The notes under the pieces were generated by a model. It did not search any database. It saw only the letters and a program-made list of their open reading frames with translations, and was not told where the DNA came from. The position numbers were made by a program, and so were the translations under genes. This document shows, piece after piece, positions 53,666 to 64,000 of a DNA stretch of 64,000 nucleotides (within the stretch, counting starts at the first letter, position 1; each line of letters begins with the position of its first letter). This stretch comes from Hymenobacter setariae. Lineage in GTDB: Bacteria > Bacteroidota > Bacteroidia > Cytophagales > Hymenobacteraceae. The DNA is taken from the NCBI RefSeq assembly GCF_007713685.1, contig NZ_VMRJ01000006.1, forward strand, positions 286,660 to 350,659, given 5' to 3'.

Positions 53666-53739
<74 letters not shown>

Positions 53740-53756
53740 CTCCGTTTAACAAGCTA

Positions 53757-53798
53757 CAAAATAGGCAGTTATGACATCAGTCATGGCTGCCTATTTTG
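53757..53798 (+). terminator. Hairpin after tRNA-Ala
   Basis: A perfect 12-bp stem (53757-53768 with 53787-53798) contains a second 5-bp stem (53771-53775 with 53780-53784). It starts 18 nt after the tRNA. Probably the tRNA terminator, though it could also belong to the island's attachment region. Confidence 0.6.
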
Positions 53799-53847
53799 CT
53801 TTATGGAAGTTCCGGTGTAAACATGGTGTAAACAACGACTTTTTGCT

Positions 53848-54789
53848 ATGACAGGTCAGTACCTAAACACTCGTAAGCCAATAAACACTAAGCAGCTTTC
53901 GTATGAGAAATTTTTAGCAACAACTGACCGATTTGCCCTTTCACTTATTTTAAAAGCCAAGCGGACCTATCCTTCTCCTGGCGACCCTGCTTTTGCGCGG
54001 GAGTTTCTTCTACGTGGGCTTAGATTCTACATCAATGAGCCTAAGGATGGAATCGGAAAAAGTGTGATAGATATGTTCGATATGAGCTTTAAGCTTGGAA
54101 TATCATTAAGAGCAACTCTAATCCAGATACTCAGGTATGTTATCAAGGAGCAACAAAGAGTATTGACATACAAGCCACAAGTCACAAGAAAGGCTGTGCT
54201 GAAGAAGTGGGGTAGAATACCACTACCATGGTTTAGCCATGTGGAGCGTTACGAAGATGGAGTGCTGCACTCTAAGGTGTACCGTGTTAAAGGAGAAACC
54301 GTAGTCGAGTACGTCAAAGAAGGGGAAATACTAGGGCCTTATGAAAATCGCCTATTATCACATCCTTCCTTTTTAACGTTGTGGACATTCCTAATATCAG
54401 TTTATGCGTCACGTAAGCTGAACAAGCTCTATGATGAGTACGATACTGGCAAGCATCCTTTAGCTCTAGCTCACGCGACAATAAAGGAGATAGCACAAGA
54501 GGTGGAAGACACCTCACCTGTCGGCACTTCAAGTAAGGACACCAAAAAAATGGTCTGGCTTGGCACTCAGAAGCAGCTTGCTGAGCTATTCGCTCAGTTA
54601 GAAAGCAAGGGCTGGCTTAGAGCACCAGTTTCGAGTGCCATCAAAAGAGCATTCACGAAGTCAGATTCTATTCAGCAAATCTTAAAGCCAGGGGTAATTA
54701 AAGGAGGGACAAATCGACCATATCCCGAAATTTTTACTACAGAGTACACCGAATGCTTCGACGGCATTTCTAAAAATAAAAATCTGTAA
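53848..54789 (+). CDS. Mobile-element protein of unknown function
   Basis: A 313-residue basic protein, clearly richer in A+T codons than the chromosome to its left. It has no signal peptide or long hydrophobic run. KMVWLGTQKQLAELFAQLESKGWL near residue 230 resembles a segment that I know from proteins of Bacteroidota mobile elements and the RteC C-terminal region (from memory; weak). It is the first gene after the tRNA, where an integrase would be expected, but I see no tyrosine-recombinase catalytic R...HxxR...Y set. A regulatory or DNA-binding role is a guess. Confidence 0.55.
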   Translation: MTGQYLNTRKPINTKQLSYEKFLATTDRFALSLILKAKRTYPSPGDPAFAREFLLRGLRFYINEPKDGIGKSVIDMFDMSFKLGISLRATLIQILRYVIKEQQRVLTYKPQVTRKAVLKKWGRIPLPWFSHVERYEDGVLHSKVYRVKGETVVEYVKEGEILGPYENRLLSHPSFLTLWTFLISVYASRKLNKLYDEYDTGKHPLALAHATIKEIAQEVEDTSPVGTSSKDTKKMVWLGTQKQLAELFAQLESKGWLRAPVSSAIKRAFTKSDSIQQILKPGVIKGGTNRPYPEIFTTEYTECFDGISKNKNL

Positions 54790-54811
54790 GTTTTTGACAA
54801 TCATAGGGGGA

Positions 54812-54844
54812 AGTCATTACCGTAATGACTTTGGTAATTGCCAA
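54812..54844. promoter_or_regulatory. Two operator-like palindromes upstream of the HTH gene
   Basis: AGTCATTAC, one base, GTAATGACT (54812-54830) is a perfect 9-bp inverted repeat. TTGGTAATTGCCAA (54831-54844) directly after it is a 14-bp palindrome with one mismatch. Both lie about 50-80 nt before the HTH gene and may be its autoregulatory sites. Confidence 0.4.
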
Positions 54845-54891
54845 GGACAAAGAAATATTGCTAATAGGGGTCGTCAACAATCAACGACTCT

Positions 54892-55233
54892 ATGCAACTC
54901 ACTTTCATCAATCTCTCTCCCGACGACCTGCGACAACTACTTCGCGAAGAAGTTGAACGACTATTAAGGCAGGCACAGCCAAACCCAGTTGAAAAGCCTT
55001 ATCTGTCTATAACCCAAGCTGAACAACAGCACGGTGTAAGCAAGTCATTTCTTTATCGCCTTTCGTCCAACCGCGAAGTCAGTACCCGCAGGGTAGGCAA
55101 GAGCATTCAGTTTGACGCGAAAGAATTAGAAAATTACTTCGACAAGACAGCGAAGCGTTCTCACGCAGCTATAGAAGCTGACCTGAAAAAAGGCGGTGTT
55201 TTTCCCACTTTGAAAGGAAAACGCTATGTCTAA
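54892..55233 (+). CDS. Excisionase-like helix-turn-helix DNA-binding protein
   Basis: A 113-residue protein. PYLSITQAEQQHGVSKSFLY and RRVGKSIQFDAKELENYF match the HTH_17/excisionase pattern (N-terminal helix, recognition helix, then a wing and the R-x-G-K/x-F-x-x-x-E-L end). The N-terminal 35 residues are acidic and probably dimerise. Such proteins control excision or regulate mobile-element genes. The downstream gene overlaps its end by 8 nt. Confidence 0.8.
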   Translation: MQLTFINLSPDDLRQLLREEVERLLRQAQPNPVEKPYLSITQAEQQHGVSKSFLYRLSSNREVSTRRVGKSIQFDAKELENYFDKTAKRSHAAIEADLKKGGVFPTLKGKRYV

Positions 55234-55666
55234 TTCGATAAAAGAACTGATAGTAGACACTTGTATCTCTATTCCTAATAAGGATACTAACTATAGAAGG
55301 AACCTAAGACGAGAAGCCTCTAACGGCCTAGAAAGCGGCAAAACTGGTTTCTTAACTAGAGAAGATGACCTTCAATCTAGTGTCGAGAATGTATTACTGG
55401 GCTTGTTTGAAGCGGAACGTGACAAGCCTGTTACTTCAGCGCTGTTTAAAAAGACCAAGTACATCTTATGTTGTGTGCTAGGCTTGGTCCCAGGGTATCG
55501 CGTGTTAATGCATCTCTGGAGTGCAGTAGTACAACTGCGCAGCCAAGCGCAGCATGATTCTCATATTGGAGCAGCTCACATTATCGTGCAGCTGCCTGGA
55601 CGAGGAGAAACGGCTTTGGCATCTATACGCTTTGACATCTTAGATGATGCGCCCCATGGACACTAA
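55226..55666 (+). CDS. Small mobile-element protein of unknown function
   Basis: A 146-residue protein that overlaps the HTH gene by 8 nt and the VirE-like gene by 23 nt, so the three form one translationally linked unit. One moderately hydrophobic stretch is present (YILCCVLGLVPGYRVLMHLW). No known domain is recognised; it lacks the primase motifs that often precede VirE-type helicases. Confidence 0.55.
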   Translation: MSNSIKELIVDTCISIPNKDTNYRRNLRREASNGLESGKTGFLTREDDLQSSVENVLLGLFEAERDKPVTSALFKKTKYILCCVLGLVPGYRVLMHLWSAVVQLRSQAQHDSHIGAAHIIVQLPGRGETALASIRFDILDDAPHGH

Positions 55667-56855
55667 GCCCAATGAAATGGCGTCATTATCAACAATGGTT
55701 GAAACGACGGCCAGTAGACGTCACAAGCTAAGAGCTATTGAGGACCACTTAGCCCAAGCCTATCGCTTCCGCTATAATGTCGTCAAGGACGTTGTAGAGT
55801 GGGGACGGCTGAGCGAATCGCAAACGTTCTGCGTGCTGGATTCTTATCATCTCAATAGTCTAGTCCGCGAGTTGGAGCATGCCGGGCATGTGATAGGTGC
55901 TGACAGATTGTTGCGCTTATTGCAATCTGACTTTGTTCCAAGGGTAGACCCAATTCAAATCTACTTCGAGAGCTTACCATCAATAGCAGGTTTAAAAGCA
56001 ATTGCAGCGCTAGCTAATACTGTAACAGTAGAAGACCCAGAAGAGTGGGAAGCTTTCCTTACTAAGTGGCTTGTAGCCTGTGTAGCAAATGTGTTGGCAC
56101 TAGATGGCTGTCAAAACCATACTTGCCTAGTACTAATTGGCGGACAAGGCCTGTATAAGACTACATGGCTGAATCTGCTTTGCCCGCCAAGCCTATCAGC
56201 ACAATACTTGTTTACGGGCAAGATTGATCCAGATAACAAGGATACCTTAAGTCTATTGGCAGAGAACTTCTTGCTCAATATAGATGACCAATTGGCTGTA
56301 CTCACTGGGCGTAGTAGTGATGCGTTGAAAACGCTTATTACTTTACCGGCTATCAAGGTGCGGCGGCCTTATGCTCCTTTATTTACTCATTTGCCAAGAC
56401 GAGCCTCATTTATGGCTAGCGTTAATGAAAGCGGGTTTTTGACCGATTCTACGGGGTCAAGACGATTTCTGCCCGTTCACGCTCAGCAAATAGATATCAA
56501 AGCAGCTAAAAGTGCTGACATGGACAAAGTATGGGCCGAAGCTCACACGCTGTTTAGGCAAGGGTACCGGTACTGGTTCAATGCCGAGGAGATAGAGGTG
56601 CTGAATGCCCGTAATGATGCCTTTCGTCATACTACCATTGAGTATGAAGTGGTCGCGAAATATCTTACGCCAGGAAGTACACAGGTCACTTTGGCTGAGC
56701 TAAAAAGCGAGCTGCAAAGGCGTAGTGGACTGGCGGTGCTAGCAGATAGCAAGCTTGGTGCTGCTTTAAAGCAGCAGCAGTTCAGTATTGCACACCCTCG
56801 AACTGTAGGTACTGGCACTGCCCGCCCTCGCTTTTATGGTGTGCAATGGCGCTAG
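55644..56855 (+). CDS. VirE-like (virulence-associated E) helicase of a mobile element
   Basis: A 403-residue P-loop protein of the VirE family found in phage satellites and integrative elements. After an N-terminal helical part come FLTKWLVACVANVLALDGCQ, Walker A GGQGLYKT (166-173), a Walker B-like FLLNIDDQ, and SFMASVNESGFLTDSTGSRR FLPV, the family's conserved sensor region. The expected role is ATP-driven replication initiation of the excised element. The primase-polymerase part usually fused or encoded upstream is not visible, so this is a short form. One of the window's only two GATC sites is inside it (56226). Confidence 0.83.
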   Translation: MMRPMDTKPNEMASLSTMVETTASRRHKLRAIEDHLAQAYRFRYNVVKDVVEWGRLSESQTFCVLDSYHLNSLVRELEHAGHVIGADRLLRLLQSDFVPRVDPIQIYFESLPSIAGLKAIAALANTVTVEDPEEWEAFLTKWLVACVANVLALDGCQNHTCLVLIGGQGLYKTTWLNLLCPPSLSAQYLFTGKIDPDNKDTLSLLAENFLLNIDDQLAVLTGRSSDALKTLITLPAIKVRRPYAPLFTHLPRRASFMASVNESGFLTDSTGSRRFLPVHAQQIDIKAAKSADMDKVWAEAHTLFRQGYRYWFNAEEIEVLNARNDAFRHTTIEYEVVAKYLTPGSTQVTLAELKSELQRRSGLAVLADSKLGAALKQQQFSIAHPRTVGTGTARPRFYGVQWR

Positions 56856-56897
56856 TCGCTTTGTGGCCTTCAGGTGATAGTTCTACCACTATCTGGC

Positions 56898-57035
56898 TGT
56901 GCCACTCGTGCCATCTCAAAAGATTGGACGAACTGTGGCACGAGTGGCACATGTGCTTTGCCTTGAAAGTAGCTCAAAACGTTTTCCCAATCGTTTCCTC
57001 AAGTTCGTTTTGAGCGTTTGTGAACGCTCAAAACG
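56898..57035. other. Origin- or oriT-like non-coding segment with two inverted repeats
   Basis: Arms 56898-56913 and 56936-56951 are a perfect 16-bp inverted repeat, each arm holding two GTGCCA units 3 nt apart. Arms 57006-57018 and 57023-57035 are a second perfect 13-bp repeat built on CTCAAAACG, and a third CTCAAAACG lies at 56973-56981. The segment follows the helicase gene, the usual location of replication or transfer origins in such elements. Function not proved. Confidence 0.45.
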
Positions 57036-57062
57036 GTTAAAATCAACCTTTTTCTTATCACC

Positions 57063-57776
57063 ATGGCTTATTTAGAACTACAGTGCATTCAGTGCGGCGA
57101 ACAGATGGAAGGCCGCGCTAACAAGAAGTTTTGTTCAGCAGCTTGTCGAGCTCAACATTTCCGAGACAATCAAGATTCGGCAAACAACTATAATGATAGC
57201 GTTCAGCCATCCACGCCTGACATAGAACAGCCAGGATTGCCAGGAACACCAGCTTTCTTGAACGTTCAGCAAACGCAACCTTATGCAGAAGTTGTGCAGT
57301 GCCAAAGTCAGCAGTACCAAACTCCTCAATACCAAAGTCGGCAGTATCAAAGTGAAGTGGCTACTGGAAATTGGGATTGGGCTGTTCAGTTTATGCAAGA
57401 GCAGGATGCCAATAGGGAGCGCGAAAAAATTGCTGATATGCATAGGCTCTACAGCAATCTCGTTGTGAAATGTTTGAAAGTAGATGGCACTACTCTTGAC
57501 GACAATAACATTCAGACTTGGATTAATGAACTTGACTATGTAAGCAGTAGATACCGTACTAATCCTGCTTTGAGCCAAGCTGGAAACCAAGCACACGAAC
57601 GGCTAGAAGACTTATACTGGTTAATAGACAAGTTTCGTAGATTATTGGAACAATGGAAGGAGCAGCCAATCCTCTTACCCAGTAAATCTTATTATCCGCC
57701 TAACAAAGCTAAGCCGGTGCTATTCGAGCTATCCTCAAAGCGTAGAAATCGATTTCGTTCTCATCTGCTTCCATAA
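57063..57776 (+). CDS. Zinc-ribbon protein of the island, function unknown
   Basis: A 237-residue protein. Cys8, Cys11, Cys24 and Cys28 (CIQC and CSAAC) form a compact zinc-binding site at the N-terminus, followed by a polar Gln/Pro/Asn-rich linker with QSQQYQTPQYQSRQYQS repeats (~80-100). A helical, charged domain takes up the rest. The pattern suggests a DNA-binding or recruiting protein. The gene's stop codon lies inside the left arm of a 36-bp inverted repeat. No family recognised. Confidence 0.6.
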   Translation: MAYLELQCIQCGEQMEGRANKKFCSAACRAQHFRDNQDSANNYNDSVQPSTPDIEQPGLPGTPAFLNVQQTQPYAEVVQCQSQQYQTPQYQSRQYQSEVATGNWDWAVQFMQEQDANREREKIADMHRLYSNLVVKCLKVDGTTLDDNNIQTWINELDYVSSRYRTNPALSQAGNQAHERLEDLYWLIDKFRRLLEQWKEQPILLPSKSYYPPNKAKPVLFELSSKRRNRFRSHLLP

Positions 57777-57852
57777 ATTATAAGGTGGTAGCCAAGTAGT
57801 ATTCTCAGCTAAGAGCAATATTACTTGGCTACCACCTTATAATTTATGGAAG
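57768..57852. repeat. Long inverted repeat at the mobile/RM module border
   Basis: Arms 57768-57803 and 57817-57852 match at 35 of 36 positions, with a 13-nt loop. The left arm includes the last codons and the stop of the zinc-ribbon gene. There is no T run. It may be a very strong terminator or the scar of a recombination between the two modules. Confidence 0.8.
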
Positions 57853-58030
57853 TAGGTAGATAAAGTATGAAACAACTTATGCAGGGAGGGTTACTTAACA
57901 AATCGCACAGACTGTCAATCCCTTATAGCCTTCATTCTCTGTCTTTCTGACTCTTGTGCTGTGCTGTATCCTTGGTCGTTTTACCTTCGTGTTACTTCTA
58001 TGGCTACGGCCTATTTTATTTCTGAGATTA

Positions 58031-59704
58031 ATGCTCTTTCCTGTAGATAACCAACAATTTTTTCGGGAGCTGGACCGCCGGCTCTGGAATTCGGCCGACC
58101 AGCTGCGCTCTAACCTTGATGCGGCGGTGTACAAGCATATTGTGCTGGGGCTGGTGTTTCTCAAGTATGTATCGGACTCGTTTGAGGACCGCCGTAAGGA
58201 GTTGAAGCAACAGTTTCAGGACCCGGAGAATGACTACTACCTAGGTGGTGATGCCGACCTGCTGACTACTGAGTTGGAGGTGCGCGACTACTACACGGAG
58301 AAGAATATTTTCTGGGTGCCGGCGCGAGCACGCTGGAGGTTTCTGCGCGAGAATGCCAAGGTGGCACCGGGGGAGAAAATAACGCTGCCCGATGAGACGG
58401 TAGAGACGTTTAAGGGTCTGGATATTTTGTTGGACCGAGCGATGCAGGCGATTGAGGATGACAACCCGCGCTTGAAGAACGTGCTGACTAAGGACTTTGC
58501 CCGCTTGCAGCTGGATCCCGATAAGCTGGGGCGGTTGCTGGATTTGGTGGCGGGGATACCTTTTGACCACAACGAGCTGAAGGCTAAGGATATTCTGGGG
58601 CACGTATATGAGTTCTTCCTAGGTGAGTTTGCCAGCGCGGAGGGCAAGCAGGGCGGGCAATTTTATACGCCGCACTCGGTGGTGACGCTGATAGTGGAGC
58701 TACTAGAGCCGTACTCGGGGCGAGTTTATGACCCGTGCTGCGGCTCGGGAGGCTTCTTTGTGCAGAGCGAGAAGTTTATTGAGGAGCACTCGGACAACCA
58801 GACCTTCAACCACAAGGAGCGACATAAAGCGGTGGAGGCCCGCAAGCGGCAGATTTCGGTGTATGGACAGGAAAGCAACCCCACTACCTGGCGGCTGGCC
58901 CAGATGAACCTCGTGATTCGCAACATCGAGGCCGACATCAAGCTGGGGGATACACTGCTGCAAGACGGTTTCCCAGATTTAAAGGCCGACTTTGTGATGG
59001 CCAACCCGCCCTTCAATCTGAAGGACTGGGGGGGCGAGACCATCCGCGACGACCGGCGCTGGGAATACGCAGTGCCGCCGGCGGCCAATGCCAACTTTGC
59101 CTGGATGCAGCACATGCTGTATCACCTGGCCCCGACCGGACGCATGGGGTTGCTGCTTAGCAACGGCTCCATGTCGTCGAATACCAACACGGAGGGAGAG
59201 ATTCGGCGGGCCATAGTAGAGGCTGACCAGGTGGAGTGCATGGTAGCGCTCCCCGGCCAGCTCTTTACTAATACACAGATACCAGCCTGCATCTGGGTGC
59301 TGAGCAAGAGCAAAGCGGCCCGCGACGGGCGCCGCGACCGGCGCGGCGAAACTTTATTTATTGATGCCCGTGAGGTGGGCTACATGAAGGACCGGGTGCT
59401 GCGCGACTTTACCAAGGCAGACATTGAGCGGTTGGCTGAGACCTTCCACAACTGGCAGCGTGGCACCGGCTACGAAGATTTGCCCGGCTTCTGTAAAAGC
59501 GCGACCCTGGCCGACATTGCCGCCCACGACTACGTGCTGACGCCCGGTCGCTACGTGGGGGCCGAAGCTAAGGAGCGCCAGGGTGAGGCGTATGAAGTGG
59601 TTATGCCGCAGCTAGTAGCCCGGCTGCGGGAGCAGTTTGCGGAGAGTGCACGGCTGCAAGGAGTTATTGAGGAAAACTTAGTTGGGTTAGGATATAATGA
59701 GTAA
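58031..59704 (+). CDS. hsdM: Type I restriction-modification methyltransferase subunit
   Basis: ATG 58031 gives the standard start MLFPVDNQQFFRELDRRLWN; the longer frame to 57956 adds a hydrophobic stretch with no family match. The 557-residue N6-adenine methylase has the N-terminal helical HsdM_N region, then FYTPHSVVTLIVELL, DPCCGSGGFF (SAM binding, residue ~234 on) and ANPPFNLKDWGG (catalytic NPPF, ~325). With HsdS it modifies the host's recognition sites. Its stop overlaps the hsdS start by 8 nt. One of the window's two GATC sites is here (58514). Confidence 0.96.
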   Translation: MLFPVDNQQFFRELDRRLWNSADQLRSNLDAAVYKHIVLGLVFLKYVSDSFEDRRKELKQQFQDPENDYYLGGDADLLTTELEVRDYYTEKNIFWVPARARWRFLRENAKVAPGEKITLPDETVETFKGLDILLDRAMQAIEDDNPRLKNVLTKDFARLQLDPDKLGRLLDLVAGIPFDHNELKAKDILGHVYEFFLGEFASAEGKQGGQFYTPHSVVTLIVELLEPYSGRVYDPCCGSGGFFVQSEKFIEEHSDNQTFNHKERHKAVEARKRQISVYGQESNPTTWRLAQMNLVIRNIEADIKLGDTLLQDGFPDLKADFVMANPPFNLKDWGGETIRDDRRWEYAVPPAANANFAWMQHMLYHLAPTGRMGLLLSNGSMSSNTNTEGEIRRAIVEADQVECMVALPGQLFTNTQIPACIWVLSKSKAARDGRRDRRGETLFIDAREVGYMKDRVLRDFTKADIERLAETFHNWQRGTGYEDLPGFCKSATLADIAAHDYVLTPGRYVGAEAKERQGEAYEVVMPQLVARLREQFAESARLQGVIEENLVGLGYNE

Positions 59705-61073
59705 GTCACTATTTGTTCTTCAAAATGATTGGGAAGTCACCACACTTGCAGAAGCTTGTAATCGTGGTGGTGGAGAGATTCAGACTGGCCCTTTTGGCAG
59801 CCAACTACACGCGTCTGATTACGTTTTGGATGGTATTCCATCAATCATGCCTCAAAATATAGGCGACAACCGCATTAATGAACAAGGAATTGCTAGGATT
59901 ACATCAGAGGATGCGTATCGTCTAAGCCGTTACTTAGTCCGAGAGGGCGATATAGTATATAGTCGCCGGGGTGATGTCGAACGAAAAGCTCTCGTAAGAA
60001 GCCATGAAGACGGCTGGCTATGCGGAACAGGTTGTTTGCGAGTTCGATTCGGCAACGAAACTTCTATAAATCCACTGTACGCCTCTTTCTATTTGTCGCA
60101 TCCCGATGTACGGAAATGGATTGTACAGCACGCGCATGGAGCAACAATGCCCAACCTAAATACTTCAATCTTAGGTGCGCTTCCTTTTGTTATTCCTTCC
60201 GCTGACGAACAACACCACATTGCCCACATCCTAGGCACGCTAGACGACAAAATCGAGCTGAGCCGCCAGCTGAACGCCACGCTGGAACAGCTGGCGCGCG
60301 CGATTTTTCAGTCGTGGTTCGTGGATTTTGACCCGGTACGGGCCAAAGCCAGCGGCGAATCGGATGAAAGCATCTGTCGCCGCCTTGGCCTCACCCCGGA
60401 GCTACTGGCGCTGTTTCCGGCGGCGTTGGAGGATTCGGTGATGGGGGAAATTCCGGTGGGGTGGAAAATAAATGCTGTCGACGAATTAGCAAACCGGGTT
60501 GCAATGGGCCCTTTTGGCTCCTCAATAAAGGTTTCAACCTTTGTGCCGGAGGGAGTACCTGTAATTAGCGGCCAGCATCTTCGCACATTTATGCTCGAAG
60601 ACAGTACTTTCAACTTTGTAACAGAGGAGCATGCTCAACAGCTTAATAAAGCAGCTGTACAAAGGGGTGATATTGTCTTTACTCATGCAGGGAATATTGG
60701 TCAGGTCGCGCTAATTCCGAATAATTCGCAATATGACCGATACATTCTCTCACAACGCCAATTTTTTCTTCGACCTAACCCCTTGCTAACGTCAGGCAAC
60801 TACTTGACTTATCATTTTAGCTCAGCCTTAGGACAGCATCAATTATTAGCCAATGCCTCTTCATCGGGTGTTCCTTCAATTGCCCGTCCAGTCTCTTACC
60901 TGCGCTCAATCAAAGTGCTATCGCCCTCCAAAAGTATTCTTGACAAATTCGATAAGGTTATCGCGCCAATTCACTCCTCAATTGAAACTAGCCGTTCTGA
61001 AGCTAAAACCCTAGTCGCCCTACGCGACGAACTCCTACCCAAACTCTTATCCGGCGACCTCCGCCTGAAATAA
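59697..61073 (+). CDS. hsdS: Type I restriction-modification specificity subunit
   Basis: A 458-residue HsdS with two target-recognition domains (about 1-175 and 250-425), each followed by a conserved helical spacer: HHIAHILGTLDDKIELSRQL in the middle and ALRDELLPKLLSGDLRLK at the end. Motifs TGPFGSQL and MGPFGSSI open the two half-sites. It directs methylation and cleavage to a bipartite DNA sequence that cannot be predicted from sequence alone. The recognition domains are much more A+T-rich than the central spacer, a mark of domain exchange. Confidence 0.95.
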   Translation: MSKSLFVLQNDWEVTTLAEACNRGGGEIQTGPFGSQLHASDYVLDGIPSIMPQNIGDNRINEQGIARITSEDAYRLSRYLVREGDIVYSRRGDVERKALVRSHEDGWLCGTGCLRVRFGNETSINPLYASFYLSHPDVRKWIVQHAHGATMPNLNTSILGALPFVIPSADEQHHIAHILGTLDDKIELSRQLNATLEQLARAIFQSWFVDFDPVRAKASGESDESICRRLGLTPELLALFPAALEDSVMGEIPVGWKINAVDELANRVAMGPFGSSIKVSTFVPEGVPVISGQHLRTFMLEDSTFNFVTEEHAQQLNKAAVQRGDIVFTHAGNIGQVALIPNNSQYDRYILSQRQFFLRPNPLLTSGNYLTYHFSSALGQHQLLANASSSGVPSIARPVSYLRSIKVLSPSKSILDKFDKVIAPIHSSIETSRSEAKTLVALRDELLPKLLSGDLRLK

Positions 61074-61079
61074 CACCGG

Positions 61080-62135
61080 ATGAAGCGGCTGATACGCGAG
61101 TTTGAGGAGCAGGTGCGGGCTGATTTAACGGCCGATGGCGACGTGCAAATTGGCGGCGTAAAAATGAGCCCATTGGCTATTTTGGACCCTGGCTCCGAAA
61201 CCTACGACGCAGAATACCTGCGCTGGCGCGACGAGGAGTGGTTGCCCAGCCGCTTTGAGCGGCGGGATAGCATCCTGGCGCTGGTGCCCGACAACCGGGC
61301 GCGCTTTACCGACCTGAGTAATGCCCTGAAACGGCAGGTGGTCCTGCCTTTTGTAGGCGCGGGCATGTCGTTATCGTCAGGGATGAAAACCTGGGGACGC
61401 TTTCTGCACGATTTGCGGGAAGCCGGCTCGTGCCCCGAGGCTGACCTCCACGCTCTGCTAACCGGCTCCACGCCCAACTACGAAGCTGCCGCAGACCTAG
61501 TGCATTCCAGCATGAGCCGTAAGTTGTTTTTGAATCGCATGAACACGCGCTTTCAAGTAGCGGCTGAGCAGGTAGCTGGCCCGGTGCGCTTGCTGCCCCA
61601 CTTATTTGCCCAACGGGTATTTACCACCAACTTCGACCATGTGCTCGAGCACGTGTATACCGAGGAAGGAATGCCCTTTGAGTTTGTGTTGCGCGGCAAC
61701 CAATATCTAGAACGAGCCGCCCAGACCTACGACCGCACCCGCCCGTCTCTGTTAAAGCTACACGGAGACGAGCAAGCCCCCAGCCAACGTGTGTTTACGC
61801 GGGAAGAATACGACCGTGCTTATGCTGATGAAAGCTTTTTGCGGCGTGAGTTGGGACGAGCAGTTAGTGGCACTGACAGCTTGTTGTTTCTAGGGTGTAG
61901 CTTGACTTCAGACCGGACAATGGCCGTGCTGCGCGCTGTGGCGCAGGCCGATGCGGGTGAGCCCGAACACTACGCCTTTTTGCCTTATGATGCCAATACC
62001 CATCAAGTCCGCGAAAACTTCCTGGCCGACCACGGCATCTACCCCATTTGGTATGACGCCCCTACCCCTGCTGACCACGACGAGGCCATAGAAGCCCTGT
62101 TGGTGGGCTTACTACGCGAACAGCGTAAATTATAA
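61080..62135 (+). CDS. SIR2-like domain protein embedded in a type I RM operon
   Basis: A 351-residue protein with the SIR2 (SIR2_2) NAD-binding fold: VLPFVGAGMSLSS (GAGMS at 93-97), VFTTNFDHVLEHVY (TTNFD at 182-186), SLLKLHGDEQAP (LHGD, 227-230) and LLFLGCSLTSDRT (270-280). These are the motifs of bacterial defence-associated sirtuin NADases, not of deacetylases. Residues 1-80 are a separate charged region. It starts 6 nt after hsdS and ends 9 nt before hsdR, so it is part of the operon. The likely role is NAD+ depletion on phage sensing or when the RM system fails (inference). Confidence 0.85.
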   Translation: MKRLIREFEEQVRADLTADGDVQIGGVKMSPLAILDPGSETYDAEYLRWRDEEWLPSRFERRDSILALVPDNRARFTDLSNALKRQVVLPFVGAGMSLSSGMKTWGRFLHDLREAGSCPEADLHALLTGSTPNYEAAADLVHSSMSRKLFLNRMNTRFQVAAEQVAGPVRLLPHLFAQRVFTTNFDHVLEHVYTEEGMPFEFVLRGNQYLERAAQTYDRTRPSLLKLHGDEQAPSQRVFTREEYDRAYADESFLRRELGRAVSGTDSLLFLGCSLTSDRTMAVLRAVAQADAGEPEHYAFLPYDANTHQVRENFLADHGIYPIWYDAPTPADHDEAIEALLVGLLREQRKL

Positions 62136-62144
62136 TTCTCTGCC

Positions 62145-64000
62145 ATGTCTCTCTTGTCCGAAGAAGCCCTCGAAAAACTCGCCGGCACCTGGTTTGAAGA
62201 AACCGGCTGGGAAGTAGTGTACGGTCCCGACGTAGCGCCCGACACGACCGAGGCTCTGCGTACTGCTTTTCGCCAAACTAGTCTACCCAGTCGGCTGCTG
62301 GCTGCCCTGCGCCGTCTCAACCCCACCCTGCCCGAGGCCGTGGTGCAGGAAGTAGCCGAGCGCGTAGTGCGGGCGCAGCACCCCAAGGCCGTGGAAAGCA
62401 ACCAGCTGCTGCACGGCTGGCTGACCGACGGTGTGCCCGTAGACGTGCCCAGTGCCACAGGCGAGCTACGTGGCGACCGGGCCTGGCTGGTGGATTTTGA
62501 CGAGGTAGCTAACAACGACTGGCTGGTAATAAGCCAGTTTACGGTGAAGGCCAGCCGCCGCAACCGCCGGCCCGACCTGGTGGCCTTCCTCAACGGGCTG
62601 CCGGTGGCTGTGCTGGAACTGAAGAACCCGCTGGACCGCGAGGCCGATGTGTGGGCCGCCTACGAGCAGCTGCAAACCTACCGGCAGGAGCTACCCGACT
62701 TATTTCTGGCCAACGTGGCGCTGGTAGTGTCGGATGGCAAATTTGCCCGCGTGGGGTCGCTCACGGCCGACCGGGAGCGGTTTATGCCCTGGCGCACCAT
62801 CGAGGACGAGCGCGACCAGCCCAACCTGGAATTTGAGTTGGAAACAGTAGTGCGGGGCTTTTTTAACCGGGAGCTGTTTCTGGACTACCTGCGGCACTTC
62901 GTGCTGTACGAGCCGGGGTCGGACGGGGCGCTGATTAAGAAAATAGCCGCCTACCACCAGTTCCACGCCGTGCGTACGGCCGTGGCAGCCACCATTCTGG
63001 CCACCCAGAAGCCGGGCACGCTGCCGATGGTGCACGACGAGCCTGCACCATACGCCGGCCGGCTGCCGGGCCGAGGAGCAATAGAGCCGGGGTCGCGCAA
63101 GGGCGGCATCGTGTGGCACACCCAGGGCTCGGGCAAGAGCATTTCGATGGCTTGCTTCGCGGGAAAGCTGCGCCAGCAGCCCGAGATGCGCAACCCCACG
63201 CTGGTAATCGTAACCGACCGCAATGACCTGGACGGACAGCTGTTTCAGCAGTTTGTATATGCCCAGGGCGTATTGAAGGAAGTGCCGGTGCAGGCCAACG
63301 ACCGGGAGCACCTGCGCGCGCTGCTAGCCGACCGGCCCTCGGGCGGCATCTTCTTTACAACCATTCAGAAGTTCAGTCCGCTGCCGGGGGAGCACGCGTT
63401 TCCGAAACTCTCGGACCGCACCAACGTGGTGGTAATAGTGGACGAAGCGCACCGCTCGCAATACGGGCTAAGCAGCCGACTGGATAAGAAGACGGGCAAG
63501 TACAAGACCGGCTTTGCTAAGCACCTACGCGACGCGCTGCCGCTGGCTACGTTCGTAGGCTTTACGGGCACCCCGCTCGAAACCGACGACGTGGACACGC
63601 GCCAGGTGTTTGGGCCGTACGTGAGCGTGTACGATATTGAAGATGCCGTGCGCGACGGGGCTACCGTTCCCATTTACTACGAAAGCAGGCTGGCCCAGCT
63701 GCACTTAGTGGAGAGCGAAGAAGAGATAGCCGAGATAAACGAGGAGGTAGAAGAAGTACTAAATGATGAAGCGGACGTGGCCCGCCGCGAAGCGGAGAAA
63801 GCTTACTGGACCAAGCTAGAAAAAGTGGTGGGGTCGCAGGCGCGGCTGGACCTGGTGGCGGCCGACATTGTGCAGCACTTCGAGGCCCGCTCGGCGGCCG
63901 GCAACATCGCGGGCGGCGGCAAGGCTATGATAGTGGGCATGAGCCGCGAAATCTGCGCCCGGCTCTACGAGGCCATTGTGAAGCTGAAGCCCGAGTGGGA
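62145..64000 (+). CDS. hsdR: Type I restriction-modification endonuclease/translocase subunit (partial)
   Basis: The first 618 residues are present; the gene runs off the right edge. The N-terminal nuclease domain has RRPDLVAFLNGLPVAVLELK N (PD-(D/E)xK: Asp and ELK). The superfamily 2 helicase has Walker A HTQGSGKS (~325), LVIVTDRNDLDGQL, TTIQKFSP, VVIVDEAHRSQYG (~430) and GFTGTPLE. It translocates DNA and cuts unmodified molecules together with HsdM and HsdS. An acidic insert (LVESEEEIAEINEEVEEVLN DE) follows the helicase core. Confidence 0.95.
   Translation, partial: MSLLSEEALEKLAGTWFEETGWEVVYGPDVAPDTTEALRTAFRQTSLPSRLLAALRRLNPTLPEAVVQEVAERVVRAQHPKAVESNQLLHGWLTDGVPVDVPSATGELRGDRAWLVDFDEVANNDWLVISQFTVKASRRNRRPDLVAFLNGLPVAVLELKNPLDREADVWAAYEQLQTYRQELPDLFLANVALVVSDGKFARVGSLTADRERFMPWRTIEDERDQPNLEFELETVVRGFFNRELFLDYLRHFVLYEPGSDGALIKKIAAYHQFHAVRTAVAATILATQKPGTLPMVHDEPAPYAGRLPGRGAIEPGSRKGGIVWHTQGSGKSISMACFAGKLRQQPEMRNPTLVIVTDRNDLDGQLFQQFVYAQGVLKEVPVQANDREHLRALLADRPSGGIFFTTIQKFSPLPGEHAFPKLSDRTNVVVIVDEAHRSQYGLSSRLDKKTGKYKTGFAKHLRDALPLATFVGFTGTPLETDDVDTRQVFGPYVSVYDIEDAVRDGATVPIYYESRLAQLHLVESEEEIAEINEEVEEVLNDEADVARREAEKAYWTKLEKVVGSQARLDLVAADIVQHFEARSAAGNIAGGGKAMIVGMSREICARLYEAIVKLKPEW

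What the first reader, a model, noticed from the sequence alone, without database searches (positions are those of the whole stretch)
58031..64000. SIR2-type putative NADase inserted between hsdS and hsdR of a type I RM system
The gene order is hsdM, hsdS, SIR2, hsdR, with gaps of 6 and 9 nt around the SIR2 gene, so it is co-expressed with the RM subunits. GAGMS, TTNFD, LHGD and the FLGCSLTSD motif are all intact (seen directly). SIR2 NADases are effectors in several known abortive-infection systems (Thoeris, DSR, SIR2-HerA, SIR2-Argonaute). A two-layer design is possible: restriction first, and NAD+ depletion as a back-up when the RM complex is blocked or its target is modified. I do not know whether this exact arrangement has been described.
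Basis: partly seen in the sequence, partly recalled or inferred. Interest (0 to 1): 0.75.

Follow-up and report, generated by a model that had tools for sequence, protein, structure and literature searches.

The report
Restriction operon carrying a suicide NADase
A bacterial DNA-restriction operon carries an extra gene for a probable NAD-destroying suicide enzyme, and that enzyme shares a small, apparently undescribed domain with unrelated suicide enzymes found at the same spot in other restriction operons, which suggests a common plug that couples such enzymes to the restriction machine.

Summary
Confirmed: hsdM-hsdS-SIR2-hsdR on one strand, gaps of 6 and 9 nt, SIR2 active-site motifs intact. 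Of 15 loci of this SIR2 family whose surroundings I saw, 14 lie in type I RM operons, 11 of them between hsdS and hsdR. That link is known in outline: Makarova et al. 2012 state that Sir2 enzymes are linked to type I RM. The gap between hsdS and hsdR is a cargo slot: 45 of 49 relatives have an ORF there, usually other genes. What I did not find described: the ~65-residue N-terminus of the SIR2 is a mobile domain ('A2'). It also sits at the C-terminus of HEPN/Abi_C (RNase-type) proteins and at the N-terminus of a third protein in the same slot. Two plasmid Abi_C proteins in the slot carry it; 12 examined outside do not. Two slot proteins also carry an HsdR C-terminal piece (one below Pfam's cut-off). 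Best reading: exchangeable abortive-infection effectors docked on the RM enzyme as a second line of defence, like PrrC on EcoprrI. NADase activity, docking and trigger are inferred. The operon is cargo of a 19-kb tRNA-integrated element.

The parts
53666..53740 (+). tRNA-Ala gene at the left end of the mobile element (insertion site)
   Evidence: ARAGORN
53694..53742 (.). 49-bp direct repeat (left end of the element); identical copy at L002:14867-14915, i.e. window coordinates 72867-72915, beyond the window
   Evidence: exact match
53848..54789 (+). 313-aa element gene; look-alike at the same end of a sister element in G041 (L059:2511-3440)
   Evidence: likeness judged by eye from the first residues; no Pfam hit
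54892..55233 (+). HTH_17-like protein (excisionase-like)
   Evidence: E 3e-5, 24.6 bits, below the Pfam cut-off of 27
55644..56855 (+). VapE-like domain protein of the element
   Evidence: PF05272, E 2.8e-36
58031..59704 (+). hsdM, type I DNA methyltransferase subunit
   Evidence: HsdM_N, N6_Mtase
59697..61073 (+). hsdS, specificity subunit
   Evidence: Methylase_S, two stretches
61080..62135 (+). SIR2_2 protein, 351 aa, probable NADase effector
   Evidence: PF13289; homologues; model pLDDT 89.8 and PDB matches
61080..61277 (+). N-terminal 'A2' domain (residues 1-66), related to the C-terminus of HEPN/Abi_C slot proteins
   Evidence: weak for this diverged type in single-profile searches (see the Against line)
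61614..62048 (+). SIR2_2 domain as matched by Pfam (residues 179-323); N184 and H228 lie in it
62145..64000 (+). hsdR, motor/nuclease subunit, cut by the window end (complete in L002)

Best explanation
The SIR2 gene encodes an NAD+-consuming abortive-infection effector dedicated to type I RM enzymes. It sits in the hsdS-hsdR cargo slot, is probably translated with the RM subunits, and has no recognised domain besides SIR2_2 and a ~65-residue N-terminal A2 domain. I propose that A2 docks it on the HsdMSR complex, which keeps it inactive. When the complex is disturbed (a phage anti-restriction protein, or engagement that fails to stop the phage), the SIR2 is freed or assembles and depletes NAD+, so the infected cell stops supporting phage. 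Shown here: gene order, intact residues, fold match, recurrence with type I RM, and A2 shared by unrelated effectors of the same slot. Inferred: NADase activity, docking, repression, trigger, protection.
Against: No activity, interaction or phage data. Tight slot linkage could arise without contact: the slot is a general cargo site and most occupants lack A2 (10 of 49 have it). SIR2 is gained and lost on the HsdR tree. The window-type N-terminus is diverged: its likeness to Abi_C's domain rests on profile-profile comparison over 34 columns, and the Abi_C profile did not find it, nor L012, L020, L030, L031, L032, L033, at E 0.1. 22 of 120 SIR2 homologues did not reach E 1e-3 for A2. In one search the independent hits G297 and G101 (4.7e-4, 7.3e-4) score no better than two chance-like hits (G274 3.2e-4, G266 7.9e-4), and G201 resembles the training row L108. 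No structure of A2 or of a complex.
Confidence: 0.55

Rival explanations
1. Passenger in a cargo slot: the SIR2 is an independent antiphage gene that settled in the hsdS-hsdR hotspot and profits from the operon's promoter; no contact with the RM enzyme.
For: 45 of 49 relatives have at least one ORF of 110 aa or more in that gap, of many unrelated kinds (Fic, Shedu, Schlafen, TIR-STAND, YhcG and others). PMC12255303 (passages) calls the site a potential recombination hotspot; DarTG2 sits there, and TgvAB sits inside a type I operon (PMC11411939, passages). Near-identical HsdRs carry different slot genes.
Against: Does not explain why SIR2 and HEPN proteins of the slot share a small domain that the Abi_C relatives examined elsewhere lack (0 of 12), nor the HsdR-like C-terminal pieces on slot proteins.
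Confidence: 0.27
2. RM as sensor rather than guard: the SIR2 is switched on by the RM complex when it engages unmodified foreign DNA (for example during HsdR translocation), so NAD+ loss accompanies restriction.
For: Other SIR2 effectors are switched on by a signal or partner (ThsA with a cyclic nucleotide, DSR2 with the tail tube, KomC with KomB and dITP: structure titles; details recalled). Same anatomy as the best explanation.
Against: Ordinary restriction would then cost the cell its NAD+; PrrC works the other way round.
Confidence: 0.15
3. The SIR2 is a deacylase or ADP-ribosyltransferase that tunes the RM enzyme, not a toxin.
For: Sir2 enzymes can do this; PMC3506569 proposed mono-ADP-ribosylation or nuclease action for such Sir2 enzymes.
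Against: The best sequence and structure matches listed are antiphage SIR2 proteins, mostly named NADases or from NADase systems.
Confidence: 0.03

Closest known systems
Sir2 genes linked to type I RM (Makarova et al. 2012, PMC3506569; passages and a figure legend seen, not the figure)
   Same: Names Sir2 among toxin-like genes inside type I and III RM systems and proposes coupling of immunity and suicide
   Different: In the passages seen: no NADase reading, no slot census, no shared N-terminal domain
PrrC-EcoprrI (PMC3874165, PMC2610378, PMC3710099; passages seen)
   Same: Suicide enzyme encoded inside a type I operon, held by the RM enzyme and freed by an anti-restriction peptide
   Different: ABC-ATPase + HEPN anticodon nuclease; here a SIR2 with A2. 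Whether PrrC bears A2 was not tested
KomC (KomBC), ThsA (Thoeris), DSR2 NADases
   Same: SIR2 fold and active-site residues; KomC is also a short SIR2 that works with a partner
   Different: ThsA adds a C-terminal sensor and DSR2 a long C-terminal part, KomC pairs with KomB (recalled); A2 matches no PDB chain; the likely partner here is a type I RM enzyme
DarTG2 between hsdS and hsdR in the RRDM island (PMC12255303) and TgvAB in the VPI-2 type I operon (PMC11411939); passages seen
   Same: Defence genes nested in a type I RM operon
   Different: Toxin-antitoxin and type IV restriction; no SIR2 and no common domain in the passages seen
HEPN genes in RM operons (Anantharaman et al. 2013, PMC3710099; passages seen)
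   Same: At least 16 HEPN clades linked to RM systems; multi-pronged defence proposed
   Different: The terms SIR2, PF14355 and Abi-C do not occur in the main text; no adaptor shared with Sir2 in the passages seen

Membership tests
SIR2_2 / NADase-type SIR2 | SIR2_2 domain over curated cut-off | tested here: met
   PF13289 91.8 bits, cut-off 24.5
SIR2_2 / NADase-type SIR2 | NAD-site glycines and catalytic Asn and His | tested here: met
   G93, G95, N184, H228 invariant in 38 sequences and aligned with ThsA; that these are the catalytic ones is recalled
SIR2_2 / NADase-type SIR2 | NAD+ hydrolysis | not testable with these tools
   needs an assay
Type I RM system | HsdM, HsdS, HsdR with motor and nuclease domains | tested here: met
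Type I RM system | Restriction and methylation at a bipartite site | not testable with these tools
   needs methylome or plating assay
PrrC-type RM-guarded suicide module | Effector gene inside the hsd operon | tested here: met
   11 of 15 family loci between hsdS and hsdR
PrrC-type RM-guarded suicide module | Physical association with the RM enzyme and release by anti-restriction | not testable with these tools
   A2 sharing and HsdR-C-terminus fusions are indirect hints
PrrC/RloC family proper | ABC-ATPase + HEPN anticodon nuclease | tested here: not met
   only SIR2_2 found in the protein
Thoeris (ThsA) | SIR2 plus C-terminal SLOG sensor, with ThsB next door (recalled) | tested here: not met
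   351 aa, no Pfam domain after SIR2_2; neighbours are hsdS and hsdR. Sequence is related (PADLOC ThsA 1.9e-18)
DSR2 | About 1000 aa with long C-terminal region | tested here: not met
   351 aa; DSR2 chains are 1004-1005 aa
SIR2-HerA / SIR2-Argonaute | Adjacent HerA or pAgo gene | tested here: not met
   flanks are hsd genes
KomBC | Adjacent KomB (HAM1-type) gene (recalled) | tested here: not met

The most novel reading that the evidence does not exclude
A2 is an undescribed docking module through which type I restriction enzymes carry exchangeable suicide effectors: the same small domain is attached N-terminally to SIR2 NADases and C-terminally to HEPN RNases, and some slot effectors use a copy of HsdR's own C-terminal domain as a second kind of plug. 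Type I RM would then be a platform that holds a swappable NADase or RNase warhead.
Probability: 0.5. Interest if true: 0.82.

Novelty: new variant of a known kind. Interest (0 to 1): 0.62.

Why it matters
It would turn a 2012 conjecture (immunity coupled to suicide through genes inside RM operons) into a testable mechanism with a defined domain. It would explain how unrelated toxins can share one sensor, and it would give a sequence tag (A2, or the HsdR C-terminal piece) for finding RM-coupled effectors among the many genes parked between hsdS and hsdR.

Tried and rejected
Co-evolution: I expected a SIR2-bearing HsdR clade. In the tree of 75 rows SIR2 needs 6 changes (shuffled mean 9.6, as low in 0 of 500), Abi_C 7 (9.6; 2 of 500), A2-bearing against the rest 12 (18.7; 1 of 500). 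So the labels are clustered but repeatedly gained or lost; strict co-inheritance is rejected in favour of cassette exchange. I left out six rows (L063, L064, L065 too distant; L111, L119, L124 without visible hsdS); L019 (cut HsdR), L022, L035, L036, L171 and L173 (other or broken HsdR) are not in the tree either. Thirteen rows labelled 'none' have an unseen or unclear slot (L059, L061, L099, L100, L110, L113, L128, L134, L135, L136, L138, L144, L149), so the change counts are approximate.

A2 in Pfam and PDB: the two N-termini tried alone (window, L023) match no Pfam family at E up to 1, and the A2 profile matches no PDB sequence up to E 5. A2 as a profile for viral contigs: too weakly conserved. 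More A2 hits by class sampling: 217 genomes gave only the two known ones. L121 in viral contigs: none. Phage records: no SIR2 relative at E 1e-5. L114 protein in plasmids: none. The 79-aa ORF between SIR2 and the next gene in L019-L021 resembles the HsdR N-terminus; unexplained. SIR2 in G747 (1125 aa, with a STAND-like part, contig of 5.2 kb) is the one family-level hit without hsd genes in view. Weak SIR2 relatives L013 and L024-L029 show no hsd genes in the stretches held; surroundings of L037-L043 were not examined for hsd genes. In L035 and L036 the gene before hsdM (784 aa) did not match my HsdR profile; that it is an R subunit is inferred from place and size.

A SIR2-Hsd complex was not modelled: the tool folds one protein. 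One of three protein-database searches was not used.
Full report
WHAT IS THERE. The window ends inside a type I RM operon: hsdM, hsdS, SIR2, hsdR on the + strand with an 8-nt overlap and gaps of 6 and 9 nt. hsdR is complete in the host contig (1079 aa) and has the nuclease, motor and C-terminal domains. The SIR2 protein has one Pfam domain, SIR2_2, and no NCBIfam match at E 0.001; PADLOC's best match is ThsA at 1.9e-18.

THE ISLAND. A 49-bp direct repeat, which includes the 3' end of a tRNA-Ala gene (53666-53740), lies at 53694-53742 and again 19.2 kb further on (72867-72915 in window coordinates). Between them lie, among others, a 313-aa protein, an HTH_17-like protein, a VapE-like protein, the RM operon with SIR2, an AAA ATPase with a 338-aa neighbour, McrBC, and a tyrosine integrase. 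Another genome of the genus, G041, has a similarly built element (integrase 84.6% identical, 30 bases or more of the same repeat at both ends) with another type I system; no SIR2 relative was found in that genome. So the operon is cargo of a mobile element.

GENOMIC CONTEXT. I counted family-level hits (150 bits or more to the family profile) whose surroundings I saw: L002 (window), L012 (Hymenobacter montanus), L019, L020, L021, L022, L023, L030 (Ketogulonicigenium plasmid), L031 (Photobacterium plasmid), L032 (Vibrio plasmid), L033-L036 (viral contigs), L045 (G747). 14 of 15 are in type I RM operons: 11 between hsdS and hsdR, 3 behind hsdS in an R-M-S-SIR2 order (L022, L035, L036; in the last two the R subunit is inferred). 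L019-L021 come from one genus and are near copies. Queried with two other family members at E <= 1e-15, the plasmid collection of 72,556 records shows three records, the same three, all inside the operon. The family is rare: 5 of 395 genomes of the phylum sample at E <= 1e-30, 2 of 395 of the class sample at E <= 1e-20, own genome included in both.

THE CARGO SLOT. I took HsdR relatives (E <= 1e-200) from 395 genomes of the phylum: 69 places in 64 genomes. I fetched or already held 64 places; 5 were not taken (G256 twice, G280, G221, G142). In 49 of the 64 both hsdS and hsdR were recognised; in 45 of 49 at least one ORF of 110 aa or more lies between them on the same strand; the median gap is 1263 nt and only one gap is under 100 nt. 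These counts rest on my own ORF calls and profiles. Occupants include FRG, Fic, Abi_C, Shedu, Schlafen/AlbA, TIR-STAND and YhcG proteins (only part of the occupants was scanned). PMC12255303 (passages) already calls the hsdS-hsdR site a potential hotspot, and PMC11411939 (passages) describes TgvAB nested in a type I operon. SIR2 is an occupant in 3 of the 49, an A2-bearing protein in 10 of the 49.

A SHARED DOMAIN. A profile of the N-termini of six RM-linked SIR2 proteins hit, besides other SIR2s, Abi_C proteins of 230 aa at their C-termini (E 5e-8 to 3e-7), a 334-aa protein without Pfam match at its N-terminus (3.5e-7) and 249-aa Abi_C proteins (1e-4, 9e-4), among 776 ORFs of the neighbourhoods (first seen). 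All of these lie in the hsdS-hsdR slot. The alignment of 17 rows (A2) shows a common core: FN-E-(W/L), two short strands, S-x-I-L-(Y/F), D-x-x-x-Y. In the reverse direction a profile of 131 Abi_C C-termini finds SIR2 N-termini at 1e-12 (L023), 2e-8 and 9e-8 (L035, L036), 4e-3 (L034), the 334-aa protein at 3e-6 and the G101 protein at 2e-4, among 5558 ORFs; it does not find L002, L012, L020, L030, L031, L032, L033 at E 0.1. Reversed ORFs give nothing up to E 0.1 with any of three profiles. For the window's own, more diverged type of N-terminus the evidence is profile-profile: Prob 92.6, E 4.5e-7, 34 columns (91.8 and 90.6 with longer stretches); the rest of the SIR2 family (3 windows) reaches Prob 3.5 and 27 windows of HsdM/S/R reach 1.9. 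Those E-values are for one comparison. The L023-type N-terminus against Abi_C gives Prob 97.9, E 3.8e-13, 54 columns. Of the 120 listed SIR2 homologues (the window's own included) 98 carry A2 at i-E < 1e-3, but E is for 120 sequences only and the profile contains two rows of that type. Two separate structure models give the same order of elements: SIR2 H2-11, E22-24, E27-29, H31-34, H40-68, with an extra strand 14-16 (pLDDT 66-80 in the first 40 residues), and Abi_C H168-182, E184-187, E190-193, H194-201, H203-224 (mean pLDDT 75, pTM 0.56). The models were not superposed.

IS A2 TIED TO TYPE I RM? Scan of 395 phylum genomes with A2: 16 genomes at E <= 1e-3. Eight hits are training rows and two (G479, G260) copies of a training row. 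Of the other six, G201 (2.3e-13; Abi_C between hsdS and an AAA_13 gene, with only an hsdR remnant; close to training row L108), G399 (1.3e-8; the R-M-S-SIR2 locus), G297 (4.7e-4; Abi_C between hsdS and hsdR of a distant type I family) and G101 (7.3e-4; slot protein) are in type I loci; G274 (3.2e-4) and G266 (7.9e-4) are not and look like chance. So among the four weak hits two are in the slot, and both are Abi_C proteins. A further sample of 217 class genomes gave only the two known hits. In plasmids I compared Abi_C proteins in and out of the slot: one search listed 25 records, of which I looked at 14, not drawn at random. The two in the slot (Paraburkholderia, Picosynechococcus) carry A2 (3e-8, 1e-6 in 968 ORFs); the 12 others do not, nor does any other ORF of those stretches at E <= 0.1. 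By exact count that is 1 in 91 by chance. One of the 12 (Salipiger) stands behind a type I-like restriction gene, one (Arthrobacter) 3 kb before a methyltransferase and a helicase gene. Two viral contigs add two more slot cases with A2, but they were found with A2-bearing queries. Eleven listed records were not examined.

A SECOND LINK. The G101 slot protein (412 aa) is Abi_C + A2 + a stretch like HsdR's C-terminus (PF11867, 22.4 bits, under the cut-off of 26.8). A slot protein of L097 (407 aa) is FRG + PF11867 (46.7 bits, above cut-off). That slot effectors carry pieces of HsdR speaks for physical coupling; which partner is bound is unknown.

TURNOVER. In an HsdR tree of 75 rows the SIR2 label needs 6 changes, Abi_C 7, A2-bearing against the rest 12; all are fewer than in nearly all shuffles, so there is some co-inheritance (caveats under Tried and rejected). 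HsdRs of L002 and L012 (SIR2) group with L057 (FRG protein in the slot, no SIR2 relative found in that genome); L121, L125, L131 (Abi_C-A2) are mixed with L122, L123, L126, L127, L129, L130 (other slot genes) at end-branch lengths of 0.018-0.045; L030 (SIR2-A2) groups with L108, L112, L179 (Abi_C-A2). So effectors are exchanged on an RM chassis.

HOW IT LIKELY WORKS. PrrC is embedded in the EcoprrI operon, held inactive by the RM enzyme, and freed when T4 neutralises it (PMC3874165, PMC2610378, PMC3710099; passages seen). I propose the same logic with a NADase, with A2 as the plug. Steps shown: anatomy, residues, fold, linkage, shared domain. Steps inferred: NAD+ hydrolysis, docking, repression, trigger, protection.

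NOVELTY. The Sir2-type I RM link and the idea of coupled suicide are in PMC3506569 (passages and a legend seen). In ten full-text searches of an open-licence library I saw no account, in listings and the passages opened, of A2 or of a domain shared between RM-linked SIR2 and HEPN proteins; most subscription papers and all preprints are missing from that library. Hence: a new variant of a known kind.

Noticed in passing
window 53666-64000 and on to L002:14915: The operon is cargo of a 19.2-kb element inserted in tRNA-Ala, with 49-bp direct repeats and a tyrosine integrase; G041 (L059) has a similarly built element with another type I system.
   Followed up: partly
L002:7444-13491 (right of the window): AAA ATPase (615 aa) + 338-aa protein + McrB + McrC follow hsdR in the same element; McrBC also follows hsdR in L034, L057 and L064.
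   Followed up: no
L097:7096-8319 (-): FRG-domain slot protein fused to an HsdR-like C-terminal domain (PF11867, 46.7 bits).
   Followed up: partly
L105:3679-4917 (-): Slot protein made of Abi_C, A2 and a weak HsdR C-terminal match, next to hsdR.
   Followed up: partly
L108:4730-7021 (-), L171:9703-12006, L179:1388-3679: Abi_C-A2 gene followed by a large ABC-type gene (AAA_13 in L108 and L171; L179 judged by its first residues) before hsdR or its remnant.
   Followed up: no
L020:7700-7939 (-) and copies in L019, L021: 79-aa ORF resembling only the HsdR N-terminus, between the SIR2 gene and a YhcG-type gene.
   Followed up: partly
L034:8876-9835 (+): Slot holding two effectors in a row: SIR2-A2 and an Abi_2 protein.
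   Followed up: no
L045:1708-5085 (-): SIR2 matching this family's profile in a 1125-aa protein with a weak STAND-like match; no hsd genes on its 5.2-kb contig.
   Followed up: no
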